Positions 11,734 to 17,972 of a DNA stretch of 64,000 nt are shown piece after piece (within the stretch, counting starts at the first letter, position 1; each line of letters opens with the position of its first letter). The notes beneath the pieces were generated by a model. That model searched no databases and was not told the origin of the DNA. It saw only the letters and a program-made list of their open reading frames with translations. The translations under genes and the position numbers were made by a program. The stretch is from Ecytonucleospora hepatopenaei (taxonomy: Eukaryota; Microsporidia; Enterocytozoonidae): NCBI GenBank assembly GCA_026692725.1, contig JAPMUG010000001.1, positions 620,001-684,000 on the forward strand. Reading direction: 5' to 3'.

Positions 11734-14604
11734 TTATATGAAAATTGTGTTTAATATGTCATCAATAATATTAAATGTTTCATCATAATAAGTACCACTT
11801 ATACTATTTTTTTCGACACTTTCAACTTTTCTAAAAGTTAAAAATTTTGTCAGATAAAAAGACATCCAATCCTCTTTTAATGTAAAAAATCCATAAAAGT
11901 CCCATATTTCTTTATATAAACACAACATTTTAAGATTAATTTCGTATAATCCCCTGTCATCCAAAATTGTTTTAACATTCAACTGATTCAATTGAGCAAC
12001 TATTTTACAGATCTCAGGAACGATTTTTTCCATAATTTTCTTAACTATTTCCATTTCACCCAGTCCATTAATTATACACCTCCATAGACCAATGCAAGAT
12101 ACTATCAGTTCGGCATTTTTGTCTGTATTACTTGTTTCAATTTTATAACAAGCTTCTTTTCCTGATTTTGATGTATTTTCAATGACATTTACCAGATTAT
12201 ACTCCAAAACCAACTGAAGAAGATTAGCACTCATTTCCACATACTTAAAAAAATTCTTTTTTGATATTAAAGCCAATATACCAAATATTTCGATTACTGC
12301 AATTTTAACATCCATGTAATTTAGTCCATCGTTAGACAATAACATGCTAAAAACATTCATACTTTCCGACAGAAGGACTTCTCTTTCAAAAATATCAAAA
12401 TCCAATTTACTTTCTGTCCAGTTTCCTTCCTCCTGATCATTTACTCCATTAAATGCAGAAACAATGTCTGTATATAAATAACATGCATTTAAAATTGTAA
12501 AAACTTCTGTGTTTTCTTGTACCTGCTTAAATATGCATGTTAGTATAAAATTAACCAAAAAATCATAAACTGTTTCATTTTTTATATTTAACTTACTTGC
12601 GTTTAAAAGTGTACTTATACTTAAAAACACTTCTCCTTGAACTGTTGTGTTAATGCATTTATAACACGTCTTTATTGCATTTATGTATAAATTTATATCA
12701 TTTGCTTCAAATACGTGACTTACACGAATAGAACACGTCAATAACAACAGCAAATTAGAAATTGCACCTTCTATGAAAATCACGTCTTGGTTATGAATTA
12801 AACCGTCATTTTGATTGGTAAGTACTTCTCCCAGTCGCTTGTATAAAAAAATTTTTATGTTTTCTTGAATTCTTTCATCCATAGGATACTGAATACACTC
12901 ATATAATGTTGTATACAATGCATTTGTTATGTTTGTGTTTGAATTGTCTATAACTTCAATTTGACTCAACAAAACATACACAATCTTGTCTATGTATTTG
13001 TCAAGTATTTCGCTATTTCTTCCATTGTAGAAAATAAAAACATTGTGGATTCCCCAATAAGCATATTCATTGTTATACATTTTGGCATCTTTTTTATTCG
13101 TGAAATTACTTATGATATATCCTACATTTGTCACCAAAATTTCTAAAAACTCTTCTATTTTACTACAAACCACCTCACAAATTCTTGAAATCCCATATAG
13201 TAAACAATCACAAAACACTTTATTTTCCTCAATTTTATGCAAAATATTCTGTATTTTATGCAAAAATAATTCTATGACCTTCTTAACAAAATCATCATTA
13301 ACATGTTTGTTGATACTGTTTCCAATCAAATGGGAAACAATCATCACATTTTCTTCAGCTGAGCTGTTGCTTAGCAATATGGTGATATAACGAACAACAA
13401 TTACATTTATATTTGTAATTTTATCGTAATAAACTGTATCATTTTTATAAATAAAATATTGAATTATTTTGTTAATGATTTTACATGATGCTTTGTGTGG
13501 AGTATATTCATTATCAAAAATACATTCGTCATCAATAAACTTAATAAGAAATTCTATTATACAAGTGTAGCTGTTATCAATTATACTGCTTTCGTTTTCT
13601 ATTAACACTTCTATCAAATCAGTGTATGCTAAAATACCATATTTAAAGTTAACCACCAGCGAATACAAAAAATCATATATTTTAATGTCCATACCATTCA
13701 AAATACTGTTGTTTTTGTGTAAATACTCACAAATAAACACCAAAATCATACATATTGACTCAATCAACTCGTTTTTGTCAGAATCTGATGCTACGAGTTT
13801 TTGGTCGTTGGTATATTTATAAATATTCATCTGCGCTACTTTTTCTGTTGTTATTGCAATCTGCCCGATAAACTGTTCGCTTAGAAATTCCTCGTAAACT
13901 TCAAGTGTTTGATATAAAGCCAAAAAAGTTGCGGAAAGCACATTTATGTCATCTGTATGTCCTATGTAACGCACTACTATTGAAAATGCAACTGTACCAC
14001 GTGTTAAGTTTTGAGTTAAAACACCATAATTATGTAAGAGATTTAAGACTTGGTTTTTGTTTGCTTTTATTACACACTCTTTATTAAAATCATAATTGCT
14101 TTCTAAAAGATTTATAACAGTATACATGGTGGTATATAGCACACCAATAGCATAAGAAGAATTTTCTTTAAAAATTTCATTTGCAAAAGTACTAAAAATA
14201 TCACCAGTTATAGCCCCTTCATTTCTTTCTTGGTCAATTTTTATAAAGTTGCCCAAAATAATTCCATACGATTCTATTTTTTGAATATTTGGCTCATTTA
14301 AGTGTTTTTGGAATTCAACAAATAGTTTTTTTCTTGTTTCTTCGCTTGTTTGTAGTAAATTTGTTTCAAACCTTCTCTTCTTTTCTTTATCTTTTTCGTC
14401 AAATGCATTTTTTAGTAATAGAAGTGATAAATATGAATGTTGTGGGTTGTTTTTTTGTGTAAATATTGTATCTATGGCAACTTCTAAAAAGCGTTCTAGA
14501 TTTGTTTCTTGTGTGTTTTTTAAATAAACCTCTGCATTCGTCCTCAATACAGTATCAGATGAAAGTAAGTTGGTCAACAATTCCATAAAATTTTCTTCAT
14601 TCAT
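11734..14604 (-). CDS. KAP95: Importin-beta family karyopherin, probably Kap95/importin beta-1
   Basis: 956 residues of helical HEAT-type repeats. The N terminus (MEELLTNLL-like helix, RTNAEVYLK, then an SLLLLKNAF segment) fits an importin-beta N-terminal domain. A late segment (KIAVIEIFGILALISKKNFFKY) resembles the importin beta-1 repeat with ILSVFGDIALAIG and K-Y. It would carry cargo through nuclear pores with Ran. It is longer than Kap95 (861), so another importin cannot be excluded. The start at 14604 follows CCCACCTTTTTATG. It is convergent with the acyltransferase, and its 5' end is 85 bases from the MSH5 stop. Confidence 0.6.
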   Translation of the reverse strand: MNEENFMELLTNLLSSDTVLRTNAEVYLKNTQETNLERFLEVAIDTIFTQKNNPQHSYLSLLLLKNAFDEKDKEKKRRFETNLLQTSEETRKKLFVEFQKHLNEPNIQKIESYGIILGNFIKIDQERNEGAITGDIFSTFANEIFKENSSYAIGVLYTTMYTVINLLESNYDFNKECVIKANKNQVLNLLHNYGVLTQNLTRGTVAFSIVVRYIGHTDDINVLSATFLALYQTLEVYEEFLSEQFIGQIAITTEKVAQMNIYKYTNDQKLVASDSDKNELIESICMILVFICEYLHKNNSILNGMDIKIYDFLYSLVVNFKYGILAYTDLIEVLIENESSIIDNSYTCIIEFLIKFIDDECIFDNEYTPHKASCKIINKIIQYFIYKNDTVYYDKITNINVIVVRYITILLSNSSAEENVMIVSHLIGNSINKHVNDDFVKKVIELFLHKIQNILHKIEENKVFCDCLLYGISRICEVVCSKIEEFLEILVTNVGYIISNFTNKKDAKMYNNEYAYWGIHNVFIFYNGRNSEILDKYIDKIVYVLLSQIEVIDNSNTNITNALYTTLYECIQYPMDERIQENIKIFLYKRLGEVLTNQNDGLIHNQDVIFIEGAISNLLLLLTCSIRVSHVFEANDINLYINAIKTCYKCINTTVQGEVFLSISTLLNASKLNIKNETVYDFLVNFILTCIFKQVQENTEVFTILNACYLYTDIVSAFNGVNDQEEGNWTESKLDFDIFEREVLLSESMNVFSMLLSNDGLNYMDVKIAVIEIFGILALISKKNFFKYVEMSANLLQLVLEYNLVNVIENTSKSGKEACYKIETSNTDKNAELIVSCIGLWRCIINGLGEMEIVKKIMEKIVPEICKIVAQLNQLNVKTILDDRGLYEINLKMLCLYKEIWDFYGFFTLKEDWMSFYLTKFLTFRKVESVEKNSISGTYYDETFNIIDDILNTIFI

Positions 14605-14689
14605 AAAAAGGTGGGTAAAATTTATTTTTATTTTTTTATTTAGTAAACAAGGTGTTTTTACCTTAAAATTTTCTAATTTTATTAAATAT

Positions 14690-16303
14690 TTAATTTATAT
14701 AATATTGATAGTTGTATTTTTTTAAAAAAGTTTGAATTCCACTGTAAAAAGCAACCAATTCTTCCTTTGAACTCATTGTTTCGTTTTTTTCAATTAAAAA
14801 CAAAACACTTCTGTTTTTTTGTAAATCATTTGATATGCTTGATACAATTGCATTATTGATAAATTTACAGAAAGATTCGAATTTACCATGTACTGTTAAA
14901 TTTGATTTAATCACATGTATTTGTTTGTAAATAGCGTTTTTACTTGTTTGTGTGATTCCAATTTGATTAAGAACAATTTTTTGACCAATACTCGTTATAC
15001 TGCTATTAGACTCTATTTTGCTAATGTTTTTAATCAATGACAAAGATGCATCAATTTCACCAATAAAATCAAAAAGTTCTAAGACCGAAGGATGCTTTAT
15101 TTTTTGAAGTATTGTATTTTCTATTAATAAATTTTCAGCATAATTAATTTCTGTAATGTCCCCAAATTGAGAATCAAGATGACTTGTTTCTTGTGTTTTG
15201 TAGTAAAATTTGTCATAAATCTTAAAAAACAATTTTCTAAAACGCTTTTTTTTCCATTCAAACGTTGTACTGTGACTAAAAATTGTATTTTCATCTTTTT
15301 TTGAAATAATTTTAGAATTATGTTGAGAAACTGAGCAAAGCGAAGTTGAAAGCTCGTCTAACTCACGACTTTCAAGCAAGAAACCTATTTGTGGAATAAA
15401 AACAATAGACAGATTTATTTCATAAGCAACAGCCAATTTTTTTGCCATAAAATCAAGTGTTTTTTCCACATTTTCCTTGAATTTTTCAAAATTGAACCTT
15501 TTCATTGATAAAACAAAATCAAGTGTATTTTTTAAATAATCTAAGGATGATTTTTTAATTGAAAATCCTAATGACAAAAGCATCATTAGACTATCAAAAA
15601 AAGATTTTAGATCATTAACCGACTTGATATGTTTTAAACTTTTTATATGATGTATTTTTTGCAAGGTTTTTTCAATTACTTTATAATTTTCACTAATACG
15701 TTTGTTAAACAAATGTTTTTCAATAATTTTTTCTTCTTTTACAAATGGAAACATTATTTGCTGTTTTATTTTACACATTCCCAACCCGGTAAAACAATTA
15801 GTTTTTAATTTATTCCAAAAATCATTTTTAATTTTAAGATTTTTGATAGTATTGCTTGAAAAACGCATTCTATTTGTGTTTTTTAAAAATTCAACAGGAT
15901 ATCCATTAAAATATGAAATTATATTTTGCTCAGTTTTGTTTCTATCAAATGCATTGGTACAATTATAGTGTTTTAAAATTGTACACATTGCATTAAATGC
16001 TCTAATTCCCAAACAATCATATTGTTTAAGGTATTTAATTTTAAAATTTTCTTTTTTTATAAAAATAATTGAAATTTGTTTGTTATTTTGCAAAAGAATC
16101 TTTTTTTCATTAGATAATGTATGCGAAACATAAATATGTGATATTTTAAAAGATTCTATAAAACTGTTTAGTTTCACCATGACCAAATTATCTAAAATAA
16201 ATTCCACAACAATATGTTTTACTTGATTGAAAATACTAATTCCAAAGACATTTTCTTTGAAATATACACAGCCTAAAATATTATTTTTTTCAAAAACTTC
16301 CAT
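14690..16303 (-). CDS. MSH5: MutS homologue MSH5 with a vestigial ATPase domain
   Basis: 537 residues from the ATG at 16303 (the frame opens at an upstream TTG). It aligns by eye with MSH5 throughout the N-terminal, core and clamp regions: QYDCLGIRAFNAM (about 95-107), FTGLGMCKIKQQIMFPF (171-187, the core-domain anchor), the MSH5 hallmark VFIPQIGFLL (301-310), and KFYYKTQETSHLDSQFGD with EIDASLSLI after it. Where MSH proteins then have about 250 residues of ABC ATPase, only about 110 remain. The P-loop position reads SNLTVHGKFE with no GxxxxGK(S/T), and the Walker B position reads LFLIEKNE. Only 85 bases separate its stop from the next gene, so no domain is hidden in another frame. MSH4-MSH5 is a meiotic crossover clamp. 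This version would bind or clamp without hydrolysing ATP (inference). Confidence 0.75.
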   Translation of the reverse strand: MEVFEKNNILGCVYFKENVFGISIFNQVKHIVVEFILDNLVMVKLNSFIESFKISHIYVSHTLSNEKKILLQNNKQISIIFIKKENFKIKYLKQYDCLGIRAFNAMCTILKHYNCTNAFDRNKTEQNIISYFNGYPVEFLKNTNRMRFSSNTIKNLKIKNDFWNKLKTNCFTGLGMCKIKQQIMFPFVKEEKIIEKHLFNKRISENYKVIEKTLQKIHHIKSLKHIKSVNDLKSFFDSLMMLLSLGFSIKKSSLDYLKNTLDFVLSMKRFNFEKFKENVEKTLDFMAKKLAVAYEINLSIVFIPQIGFLLESRELDELSTSLCSVSQHNSKIISKKDENTIFSHSTTFEWKKKRFRKLFFKIYDKFYYKTQETSHLDSQFGDITEINYAENLLIENTILQKIKHPSVLELFDFIGEIDASLSLIKNISKIESNSSITSIGQKIVLNQIGITQTSKNAIYKQIHVIKSNLTVHGKFESFCKFINNAIVSSISNDLQKNRSVLFLIEKNETMSSKEELVAFYSGIQTFLKKYNYQYYIN

Positions 16304-16364: not shown

Positions 16365-17972
16365 ATGTATAATTTTGAAGAAGAGCAATATACTATGTTT
16401 AAGAAAAAATATGAAAATTTAGAAAAAACATGTTGTATTATAGATAACGGATCTTTTGAAATAAAGGCTGGTTTTCAAGACAAACTCTGTTTGATAACTC
16501 GAAATAGAATTTACAAGAAGGGAAACAAATACGATTTTGAAGTTTTTGTTGGTGCTACTCGTTTAGAAATGTATAATTATGATACTATATCAAATTTAAT
16601 TATAGCAGAACAAACCTTTTGTGCTCTTTTTAAATTTCTTGAAATTGAAAAAAATAAAAAATGTGGGAAAATTGTTATTTTAACGACAATGCCCGACTCT
16701 ACCACAGATGAAAGCATAGCAAAAATACTTATAGAAAAATTTGGATGTTCAGAAGTTTTTTTAGGTTTTGATTTTATGTTTTGTTATAATCGATATTTTG
16801 TAAACAAAGATACACTGGTCATTTGTATTTCTGCATCAAATACATATGTATGTGTTGTTCAAAACAATAATATTGTGTTTTTACACAAATTATGTTTTGG
16901 AGCTAACGATTTAATGTGTTATATAAATTATACTATGCATTTTCAGCACAAAATGTATAAAAATAGCTATGAAAAACTTTTAGATCATGTTAGTGTAGCA
17001 TATGATTATTCAGAGGAAGCATTCTCTTTGTTTCAAAAAATAAAGTCAAAAAAATATGAAGATTGTTTGTTTTTAGAGGAAGAAAATCAAAGTATTGCTG
17101 ATGGTTTTAACATTAAAGAAACAGAAGAAAAAAGCGTGACAAAAGAATTTATATTGCCAGTTATTGATTACAATTTATTGAAAAAAGAAGACATAGGTTT
17201 ACAGGATTCTGACATTAAGGAAAAAAAGAAGCAGAAATTAATTTTTCATTCCACATTTGCACGTTTAAAAAGCAAAATTGACTGTGTTTTAAACAAAATA
17301 GGCAAAAAATTAGCTGATAATGAAGAAATGCTAGAAAAAACACAGAACTTTGAATTTTTCTTAGAACGAAAAAAACATGAATTTGTAGATTTAAAAAGAA
17401 GATTAAAAGAACGCGAAACTTTACGAAAAAATGCAAACAATAGAAAAACATTAGAAGCTGTTATAAAATACAAAGAAAAAAATTTAACAGTTGAAGAATT
17501 TAAATTGCAACAAAAAATTATGGAAGCAGAAAATAAAGATATGGAACAAGAGTTAATTGTTGAATTGGATAGGCGTGCCAAAGAATTAAGTGCACTCGAT
17601 CCAAATTATGTTTTGTTTGAATCATCTACAGTCGATATTTTAAAAGGTGAAAATATAAGAAGGTCTTTTTTATCAATTGAAAAATACAAATGGGGAGAGA
17701 TTTTTTTTAATCCGTCTATTTTACATATTGATCAAATGGGTTTGTCTGATTGTTTGGAGTTAGTTTCAAAGCAATTTGAAGTAGAAAACGTATTACTTTG
17801 TGGTGGAATGGCAAAAATGAAAGGTCTATATCAACGAGTTTATAAAGAATTAATATGCAGGTCAAAAACTGGCAAAATAAACATTAAAATAGCGGATGAC
17901 CCACAAAAAGATCCTTTTTATGGAGCAGATACAAACTTTTGTCATAAAAAGTATACAAAAGATAATTTATAA
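16365..17972 (+). CDS. ARP5: Actin-related protein 5 (INO80 complex)
   Basis: 535 residues. The actin fold begins with CCIIDNGSFEIKAGF and ends with a LLCGGMAKMKGLYQRV segment and DPFYGAD. The middle is interrupted by a long, charged, coiled-coil-like insertion (about 240-400), which is the Arp5 hallmark, as is KFGCSEVFLGFDFMFCYNRYF. Arp5 with Ies6 couples the INO80 ATPase to nucleosome sliding. The presence of Arp5 implies that the organism retains an INO80 remodeller. Start by CCCTAGATG. It is divergent from MSH5 by 61 bases and convergent with POL2 by 10 bases. Confidence 0.8.
   Translation: MYNFEEEQYTMFKKKYENLEKTCCIIDNGSFEIKAGFQDKLCLITRNRIYKKGNKYDFEVFVGATRLEMYNYDTISNLIIAEQTFCALFKFLEIEKNKKCGKIVILTTMPDSTTDESIAKILIEKFGCSEVFLGFDFMFCYNRYFVNKDTLVICISASNTYVCVVQNNNIVFLHKLCFGANDLMCYINYTMHFQHKMYKNSYEKLLDHVSVAYDYSEEAFSLFQKIKSKKYEDCLFLEEENQSIADGFNIKETEEKSVTKEFILPVIDYNLLKKEDIGLQDSDIKEKKKQKLIFHSTFARLKSKIDCVLNKIGKKLADNEEMLEKTQNFEFFLERKKHEFVDLKRRLKERETLRKNANNRKTLEAVIKYKEKNLTVEEFKLQQKIMEAENKDMEQELIVELDRRAKELSALDPNYVLFESSTVDILKGENIRRSFLSIEKYKWGEIFFNPSILHIDQMGLSDCLELVSKQFEVENVLLCGGMAKMKGLYQRVYKELICRSKTGKINIKIADDPQKDPFYGADTNFCHKKYTKDNL

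What the first reader, a model, noticed from the sequence alone, without database searches (positions are those of the whole stretch)
14690..16303. An MSH5 homologue that has lost its ATPase domain
The clamp and core regions carry clear MSH5 signatures (VFIPQIGFLL, QYDCLGIRAFNAM, KFYYKTQETSHLDSQFGD). The C-terminal ABC ATPase, normally about 250 residues with GxxxxGKS, is reduced to about 110 residues in which P-loop and Walker B positions read SNLTVHGKFE and LFLIEKNE. The gene is otherwise open over 537 codons and flanked 85 bases later by another gene, so nothing is hidden downstream. A conserved open frame with a decayed catalytic domain suggests selection for a non-hydrolysing clamp, perhaps with MSH4 supplying the only ATPase. 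I do not know of such a form described in microsporidia.
Basis: partly seen in the sequence, partly recalled or inferred. Interest (0 to 1): 0.75.

Follow-up and report, generated by a model that had tools for sequence, protein, structure and literature searches.

The report
MSH5 without its ATPase, in microsporidian
A microsporidian parasite keeps an intact gene for the meiotic crossover protein MSH5, but the part that binds and burns ATP, which yeast and mice need in this subunit, is gone; this asks whether the crossover clamp can work with ATP in only one half, or whether the gene is on its way out.

Summary
The frame is real: minus strand, 16303..14690, 537 codons, no stop, 85 bases before the next gene, in a very likely microsporidian genome. 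Residues 1-424 are an MSH5 homologue: two MSH5 blocks match at 27.6 and 33.4 bits (0 of 5000 shuffles each), and MSH5 profiles match at E 3.9e-6 and 2.7e-9 (single comparisons, some reference rows recalled). Similarity stops at the end of domain III. Only the helix that normally follows the P-loop matches weakly (59 of 5000 shuffles). No detached ATPase domain was found in the genome at E<=1.

A fourth, very divergent MutS homologue 82 kb away keeps Walker A and B but no detectable S-loop. It is probably MSH4, but tree and alignments do not settle that.

Best reading: a MutSgamma whose MSH5 half is a pseudo-ATPase, with the only nucleotide site on the MSH4-like half. Relic decay is the main rival. 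No orthologue was obtained and both structure predictions failed, so selection is inferred, not measured.

The parts
14690..16303 (-). whole coding frame of the MSH5 homologue, 537 codons plus TAA stop
   Evidence: same frame found in its genome at C5:634693-636303, no other match there at E<=10
15032..16303 (-). residues 1-424: MutS domains II-IV in the MSH5 manner, no room for mismatch domain I
   Evidence: MSH5 profile matches residues 2-91 (weak, 0.5 bits) and 235-424 (14.7 bits); MutS-wide profile 68-427; MutS_I rings only in the MSH6-like gene, but misses the MSH2-like one too
15368..15409 (-). MSH5 clamp motif, SIVFIPQIGFLLES (residues 299-312)
   Evidence: 27.6 bits, 0 of 5000 shuffles
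15155..15214 (-). MSH5 motif, DKFYYKTQETSHLDSQFGDI (residues 364-383)
   Evidence: 33.4 bits, 0 of 5000 shuffles
14693..15031 (-). residues 425-537: tail in place of domain V, no detectable Walker A, Walker B, S-loop or H-loop
   Evidence: best PDB match E 0.27, not credible
14948..15007 (-). possible remnant of the helix that follows the P-loop (NSSITSIGQKIVLNQIGITQ, residues 433-452)
   Evidence: 10.3 bits, 59 of 5000 shuffles, four blocks tried; BLASTP to the MSH4-like protein E 0.002 for the single comparison
14876..14905 (-).
   Evidence: not supported: not even the best Walker A place of the tail
14780..14803 (-).
   Evidence: not supported: best place of the tail, but 1268 and 1586 of 5000 shuffles score as well
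14605..14689 (.). 85-base gap to the next gene; no room for a missing ATPase
   Evidence: GC 0.15
11734..14604 (-). next gene downstream, 956 aa, no Pfam match at 0.001
16365..17972 (+). divergent neighbour upstream, actin-related protein
   Evidence: Pfam Actin 28 bits, just over the cut-off of 27

Best explanation
This is a vertically inherited MSH5 that lost its ABC ATPase (domain V) but is still a maintained gene. Shown: the MSH5 core, the open frame, the absence of detectable ATPase motifs in the tail and of a detached ATPase at the sensitivity used, and another divergent MutS homologue that still has Walker A and Walker B. Inferred: that this other protein is MSH4; that the two pair; that the pair binds recombination intermediates through the retained lever and clamp domains; that any nucleotide switch is one-sided, on the MSH4-like subunit, and weak in hydrolysis because no trans S-loop is detectable in either protein; that the 113-residue tail, or contacts of domains III/IV, replace the lost dimer contacts.
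For: MSH5 blocks at 0 of 5000 shuffles. MSH5 profile E 3.9e-6 (with the recalled yeast row) and 2.7e-9 (without), each for a single comparison; the MSH4 profile scores -9.3 or nothing. Among 66 frames of at least 150 aa from the window, L004 and L006 it is second only to the MSH2-like frame (17.7 bits against 4.5 for the next; L005 with the MSH6-like gene was not in that set). Walker A, Walker B and S-loop at shuffle level in the tail. Pfam finds MutS_V in a mammalian MSH5 at E 1.5e-48 and nothing in this protein at E<=10. No further MutS_V match in the genome at E<=1 beyond the MSH6-like, MSH2-like and MSH4-like frames. MSH4-like protein: Walker A 26.9 bits, 0 of 5000; Walker B core 12.6 bits, 47 of 5000. 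Meiotic kit: SPO11-type, MND1, RAD51-type. Coding signal in frame runs through the tail, 0.15 bits per codon with all five other frames negative. The identical 537-aa protein is in 6 contigs of the protein database, the longest 229,526 bases, so not the 811,456-base contig used here.
Against: In yeast a Walker A mutation in either MSH4 or MSH5 is null, and of the matched predicted hydrolysis mutations MSH5's is null while MSH4's has wild-type spore viability (PMC2928781, passages). In mouse an MSH5 P-loop mutation keeps MutSgamma foci from accumulating (PMC6553527, passages). Elsewhere, then, MSH5's ATP site matters at least as much as MSH4's. The dimer contacts of domain V are gone too (recalled). 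No orthologue, no expression data, no dN/dS. The MSH4 identity of the partner is weak: 13.9 against 7.5 bits without the yeast rows, 7.2 against 0.4 with them, where shuffles reach 9.3; its non-ATPase part aligns better to the recalled yeast MSH5 (94) and to the own MSH6-like protein (101) than to human MSH4 (63); the tree rejects neither MSH4 (p-AU 0.14) nor MSH5 (0.078) as its group.
Confidence: 0.55

Rival explanations
1. Relic: the lineage is losing class I crossovers (Encephalitozoon has lost MSH4 and MSH5), and this is a decaying gene whose ATPase went first and whose frame has not yet collected a stop.
For: Both MutSgamma candidates are extremely divergent with reduced domain V; no MLH3-like third MutL was seen, the third match of that search being HSP90-like by eye; Encephalitozoon appears to lack Msh4 and Msh5 (PMC2488364, passages); [quoted passage not shown]
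Against: 537 codons without a stop at about 24% GC (0 of 2000 shuffled genes and 0 of 20000 shuffled tails open); MSH5 motifs kept; coding signal to the end; SPO11-type, MND1 and RAD51-type genes kept.
Confidence: 0.27
2. The tail is a full functional replacement: a new dimerisation or partner-binding domain, and the protein works without nucleotide at all, as does its partner.
For: The tail is coding-like but resembles neither domain V nor, by sequence, any solved structure; no S-loop is detectable in either protein.
Against: The MSH4-like partner keeps a clean Walker A and an acceptable Walker B, which is hard to explain without nucleotide use.
Confidence: 0.1
3. Domain V is still there as a fold, evolved beyond sequence recognition, possibly with a miniature ABC core.
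For: Weak match to the post-P-loop helix in the right order (59 of 5000 shuffles; E 0.002 to the MSH4-like protein). MAFFT instead lays SIGQK on the P-loop.
Against: The tail has 113 residues against 299 from the same point in human MSH5; no detectable P-loop; the helix match is about 0.05 after correction for the four blocks tried.
Confidence: 0.05
4. Artefact: an assembly deletion or frameshift removed the domain.
For: No reads could be examined.
Against: No detached domain V elsewhere at E<=1; the next gene starts 85 bases on and is intact over 956 codons; the identical protein occurs in 6 database contigs, though these may share reads.
Confidence: 0.03

Closest known systems
MSH5 of animals, fungi and plants (half of MutSgamma, MSH4-MSH5)
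   Same: Domains II-IV without mismatch domain I; MSH5 clamp motifs; presumed meiotic crossover role
   Different: Here the ABC ATPase (Walker A, S-loop, Walker B, C-terminal part) is not detectable and a 113-residue tail stands in its place
MSH4 and MSH5 of Edhazardia aedis, and MSH4 of Vavraia culicis (PMC4435813, passages)
   Same: Microsporidian genes filed under these names; both upregulated in sexual stages of E. aedis
   Different: Their ATPase domains are not described in the passages read, and their sequences could not be fetched, so it is unknown whether they share the loss
MSH5 P-loop point mutants, mouse Msh5 G596A and yeast msh5-G648A (PMC6553527, PMC2928781, passages)
   Same: MSH5 that should not bind ATP beside an intact MSH4; the yeast mutant still pairs with MSH4
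   Different: Point mutations with null or severe phenotypes; here a whole domain is missing in a natural gene

Membership tests
MSH5 (by descent) | MSH5-specific motifs in the clamp/lever region | tested here: met
   27.6 and 33.4 bits, 0 of 5000 shuffles; MSH4 counterparts not found (3043 and 630 of 5000 shuffles as good)
MSH5 (by descent) | MSH5 profile beats profiles of other MutS homologues | tested here: met
   11.0 or 21.3 bits for MSH5; MSH4 -9.3 or no match, own MSH2-like -6.9, own MSH6-like -4.2; all MSH4 rows and two of three MSH5 rows are recalled
MSH5 (by descent) | Groups with MSH5 in a tree | tested here: inconclusive
   Groups with MSH5 at 66/64, not significant; grouping with MSH4 p-AU 0.06, not rejected
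MSH5 (by descent) | No mismatch-binding domain I | tested here: met
   The MSH5 profile (domain II on) aligns from residue 2, weakly, leaving no room; MutS_I rings once in the genome, in the MSH6-like gene, though it misses the MSH2-like gene too
MutS-type ATPase (domain V) | Walker A GxxxxGK[ST] | tested here: not met
   0.9 bits, 2219 of 5000 shuffles as good; nine other MutS homologues 23.8-38.2
MutS-type ATPase (domain V) | Walker B and S-loop | tested here: not met
   1586 and 581 of 5000 shuffles as good
MutSgamma heterodimer | A MSH4 partner encoded in the same genome | tested here: inconclusive
   MSH4-like frame C5:718846-720834 minus: MSH4 over MSH5 profile, but better alignment to recalled yeast MSH5 than to human MSH4 outside the ATPase, unresolved tree, no MSH4 motif blocks
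MutSgamma heterodimer | Physical pairing and crossover function in meiosis | not testable with these tools
   needs proteins or cells

The most novel reading that the evidence does not exclude
A natural MutSgamma in which MSH5 has no ATPase at all and the partner keeps a lone cis Walker A/B site without a trans S-loop, so that the crossover clamp runs without a two-site ATP cycle, perhaps held together by a new C-terminal domain of MSH5.
Probability: 0.35. Interest if true: 0.75.

Novelty: new variant of a known kind. Interest (0 to 1): 0.5.

Why it matters
In yeast and mouse the ATP site of MSH5 is needed, and in yeast a predicted hydrolysis mutation is tolerated better in MSH4 than in MSH5 (PMC2928781, PMC6553527, passages). 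A natural MSH5 without any ATPase, beside a partner that keeps Walker A and B, would be the reverse asymmetry and would show which part of the clamp's work needs the ATP cycle. If it is instead a relic, it is a step caught in the loss of class I crossovers in microsporidia. Either way, orthologues in a few related genomes would decide.

Tried and rejected
Protein database searches with the whole protein (7997 candidates scored) and with residues 288-392 (32 candidates) returned only the protein itself. The third and last search, with human MSH5, found 6248 proteins but lists the best 120; those that carry a species name are mammals, so it gave a checked human reference but no fungal or microsporidian orthologue. 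A mixed query would have been a better use of that search.

Both AlphaFold jobs gave unusable models, mean pLDDT 36.8 with ten mammalian MSH5 rows and 34.6 alone; no fold search was run on them. Pfam and PDB sequence searches of the protein found nothing real, nor did the tail against PDB or the MSH4-like protein against PDB at E<=0.1.

I first read SIGQK as a dead P-loop against GPNSSGKS (note; MAFFT and the local alignment place it so too). I now prefer the helix after the P-loop, because the local match is at p 0.23 and the block test and the BLASTP to the MSH4-like protein place it there. Neither placement gives GxxxxGK[ST]. My early idea that MSH5 keeps an S-loop for MSH4's site was dropped: the S-loop score is at shuffle level in both proteins.

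In one search a MSH4 profile step pointed to a missing file and made nothing; the MSH4 test is that. A HORMA search found nothing, but its controls were empty too, so HOP1 is undecided. Papers: seven searches. Eight papers hold both microsporidia and MSH5; three of the eight were opened, passages only. Four other papers were opened, passages only. A phrase search for MSH5 without its ATPase found one irrelevant paper. That is thin ground for saying it is not in print, and I do not claim so.

Full report
WHAT IS THERE. The frame on the minus strand from ATG 16303 to the stop at 14690 is open over 537 codons. The next gene on the same strand starts at 14604, 85 bases on, and is open over 956 codons; upstream a divergent actin-related gene starts at 16365. 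The window is C5:620001-684000 of a 3,094,744-base assembly in 13 contigs. That assembly holds four matches over the full 1311 positions (1186.6 bits each) to the microsporidian SSU rRNA model. The same model also rings in 9 of 14 prokaryote controls, whose scores are not shown, but a full-length match of that strength makes a microsporidian very likely. The species was not identified. The protein has no other match in its genome at E<=10. The identical protein is in 6 contigs of the protein database, the longest of 229,526 bases, so not the 811,456-base contig used here; whether these are independent assemblies is unknown.

IS IT MSH5. Pfam and PDB sequences give nothing real, while Pfam finds domain V in a mammalian MSH5 at E 1.5e-48. 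Identity therefore rests on finer tests. A profile of MSH5 (four fetched mammalian rows plus recalled Arabidopsis and yeast) scores the open frame at 17.7 bits, E 2.4e-6, second among 66 frames of 150 aa or more taken from the window, L004 and L006, behind the MSH2-like frame (149.6); the next is at 4.5 bits. L005, which holds the MSH6-like gene, was not in that set. The 537-aa protein alone scores 16.3 bits, and the best of 2000 shuffles (1899 reported) reaches 9.5. With three references per family it scores 11.0 bits for MSH5 (E 3.9e-6 for one comparison; shuffles reach 5.9) against -9.3 for MSH4, -6.9 for the own MSH2-like and -4.2 for the own MSH6-like protein. Without the yeast rows MSH5 gives 21.3 bits (E 2.7e-9) and MSH4 no match. 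All MSH4 rows and two of three MSH5 rows in that test are recalled. Two blocks of the clamp region, SIVFIPQIGFLLES and DKFYYKTQETSHLDSQFGDI, reach 27.6 and 33.4 bits, 0 of 5000 shuffles each, and still 0 of 5000 with the fetched human protein alone. These blocks were chosen after seeing the match. Against this: in plain local alignment the core resembles the own MSH6-like protein too (p 0.002) besides MSH5 (p 0.001 for each of three, the least possible with 1000 shuffles), though not human MSH4 (0.13) or the own MSH2-like protein (0.36). In a ten-row tree it groups with MSH5 at only 66/64, with long branches, and grouping with MSH4 is not rejected (p-AU 0.06). I take MSH5 by descent as very likely.

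WHERE THE SIMILARITY STOPS. The two profile alignments printed end at residues 424 and 427 (envelopes 432 and 436), the end of domain III. The remaining 113 residues compare with 299 in human MSH5 from the same point. Block tests on the tail: strand plus Walker A 0.9 bits (2219 of 5000 shuffles as good), Walker B 1.3 bits (1586), S-loop 2.2 bits (581). Nine other MutS homologues, scored with a profile of the others, give 23.8-38.2 bits for Walker A at the true place; five of the nine are recalled rows. The Walker B core (1268 of 5000) and H-loop (2936 of 5000) are likewise not detectable. The one hint is the helix that follows the P-loop: NSSITSIGQKIVLNQIGITQ, 10.3 bits, 59 of 5000, four blocks tried; the MSH4-like protein itself scores only 7.6 on that block, and BLASTP between the tail and that protein finds the same stretch at E 0.002 for one comparison. 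If this is right, the strands before the P-loop and the P-loop itself are deleted outright. MAFFT instead lays SIGQK on the P-loop, which would leave it without its lysine. Whole-tail alignments are not significant (p 0.23 to human MSH5; 160 of 300 shuffles), while the MSH4-like protein passes the same glocal test (0 of 200).

NOT HIDDEN ELSEWHERE. A genome-wide MutS_V search at E<=1 finds three places only: a MSH6-like gene (E 7.9e-69; its best PDB match is human MSH6), a MSH2-like gene (1.5e-53; this name is mine, by eye) and the MSH4-like frame (0.035). A detached ATPase of ordinary conservation is excluded; one as divergent as the MSH4-like one might be missed.

THE PARTNER. The third frame, C5:718846-720834 minus (in L004), 662 aa from its first ATG, about 82 kb from the MSH5 gene, matches MutS_III (E 5e-4, from residue 151) and MutS_V weakly (0.09), both below Pfam's cut-offs. 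No mismatch domain I was found in it, but MutS_I, which rings only in the MSH6-like gene at E<=10, misses the MSH2-like gene as well; the short stretch before domain III is the better argument. It reads GPNSSGKT and NTFVFIDE: Walker A 26.9 bits, 0 of 5000; Walker B core 12.6 bits, 47 of 5000; S-loop 610 of 5000 and H-loop 2222 of 5000, so not detectable. It scores 7.2 bits for MSH4 against 0.4 for MSH5 (shuffles reach 9.3), and 13.9 against 7.5 without the yeast rows (shuffles reach 5.6 and 5.5). Against MSH4: outside the ATPase its local alignment is better with the recalled yeast MSH5 (94, p 0.001) and the own MSH6-like protein (101, p 0.003) than with human MSH4 (63, p 0.02); neither MSH4 motif block is found in it, nor either MSH5 block; the tree puts it beside the own MSH6-like protein (89/85) with a long-branch warning and rejects neither MSH4 (p-AU 0.14) nor MSH5 (0.078) as its group. 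MSH4 is the likely name by profile, architecture and elimination, not proof.

CONTEXT. A SPO11-type gene, MND1, one RAD51-type match, and MLH1-like and PMS1-like MutL genes (the names are mine by eye and recall) are present. The third match of the MutL ATPase search reads as HSP90 by eye, so no MLH3 was seen. HOP1 is undecided. Print: Encephalitozoon appears to lack Msh4 and Msh5 (PMC2488364, passages). Edhazardia upregulates both in its sexual stages; [quoted passage not shown] Paramicrosporidium has both and lacks Mlh3 (PMC5701793, passages).

HOW IT MAY WORK. In yeast, Walker A mutations are null in both subunits, a predicted hydrolysis mutation is null in MSH5 but gives wild-type spore viability in MSH4, and human MSH4 is cited as the weaker ATP binder (PMC2928781, passages). 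In mouse MSH5 G596A, MutSgamma foci do not accumulate (PMC6553527, passages). The microsporidian pair would be the reverse: MSH5 without a site, the partner with Walker A and B. In MutS dimers each ATP site takes a trans element from the other subunit, and domain V carries the main dimer contacts (recalled). With no S-loop detectable in either protein, I expect ATP binding at most on the MSH4-like half, slow or no hydrolysis, and pairing through other surfaces, perhaps the tail. All of this is inference.

FUNCTION OR RELIC. For function: no stop in 537 codons at about 24% GC (0 of 2000 shuffled genes and 0 of 20000 shuffled tails stay open), coding signal in frame through the tail at 0.15 bits per codon (0.24 in the core) with the other frames negative, motifs kept, meiotic genes kept. 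For relic: extreme divergence of both proteins, no MLH3 seen, loss of the pair in Encephalitozoon. Without orthologues this cannot be settled; I put function at roughly two to one or a little better.

Noticed in passing
L004:3347-5335 (G000:C5:718846-720834, minus): Divergent MutS homologue, probably MSH4, with Walker A and Walker B but no detectable S-loop or H-loop: its domain V is itself reduced.
   Followed up: partly
L005:3824-7003 (G000:C5:683824-687003, plus): MSH6-like gene with domain I and a full ATPase whose start lies in the last bases of the window, so three of the four MutS genes lie within about 90 kb on one contig.
   Followed up: no
G000:C13 (L014), C6 (L015), C8 (L016): Only two MutL-type genes seen (MLH1-like, and PMS1-like with a DQHAADE motif); the third hit reads as HSP90, so no MLH3 was seen although SPO11-type and MND1 genes are kept.
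   Followed up: partly
window 11734-14604 minus: 956-aa frame without any Pfam match at 0.001; by eye a helical-repeat protein.
   Followed up: no
G000:C6:178775-179506: A single Rad51-family match at E<=0.001, so no separate DMC1 was seen.
   Followed up: no
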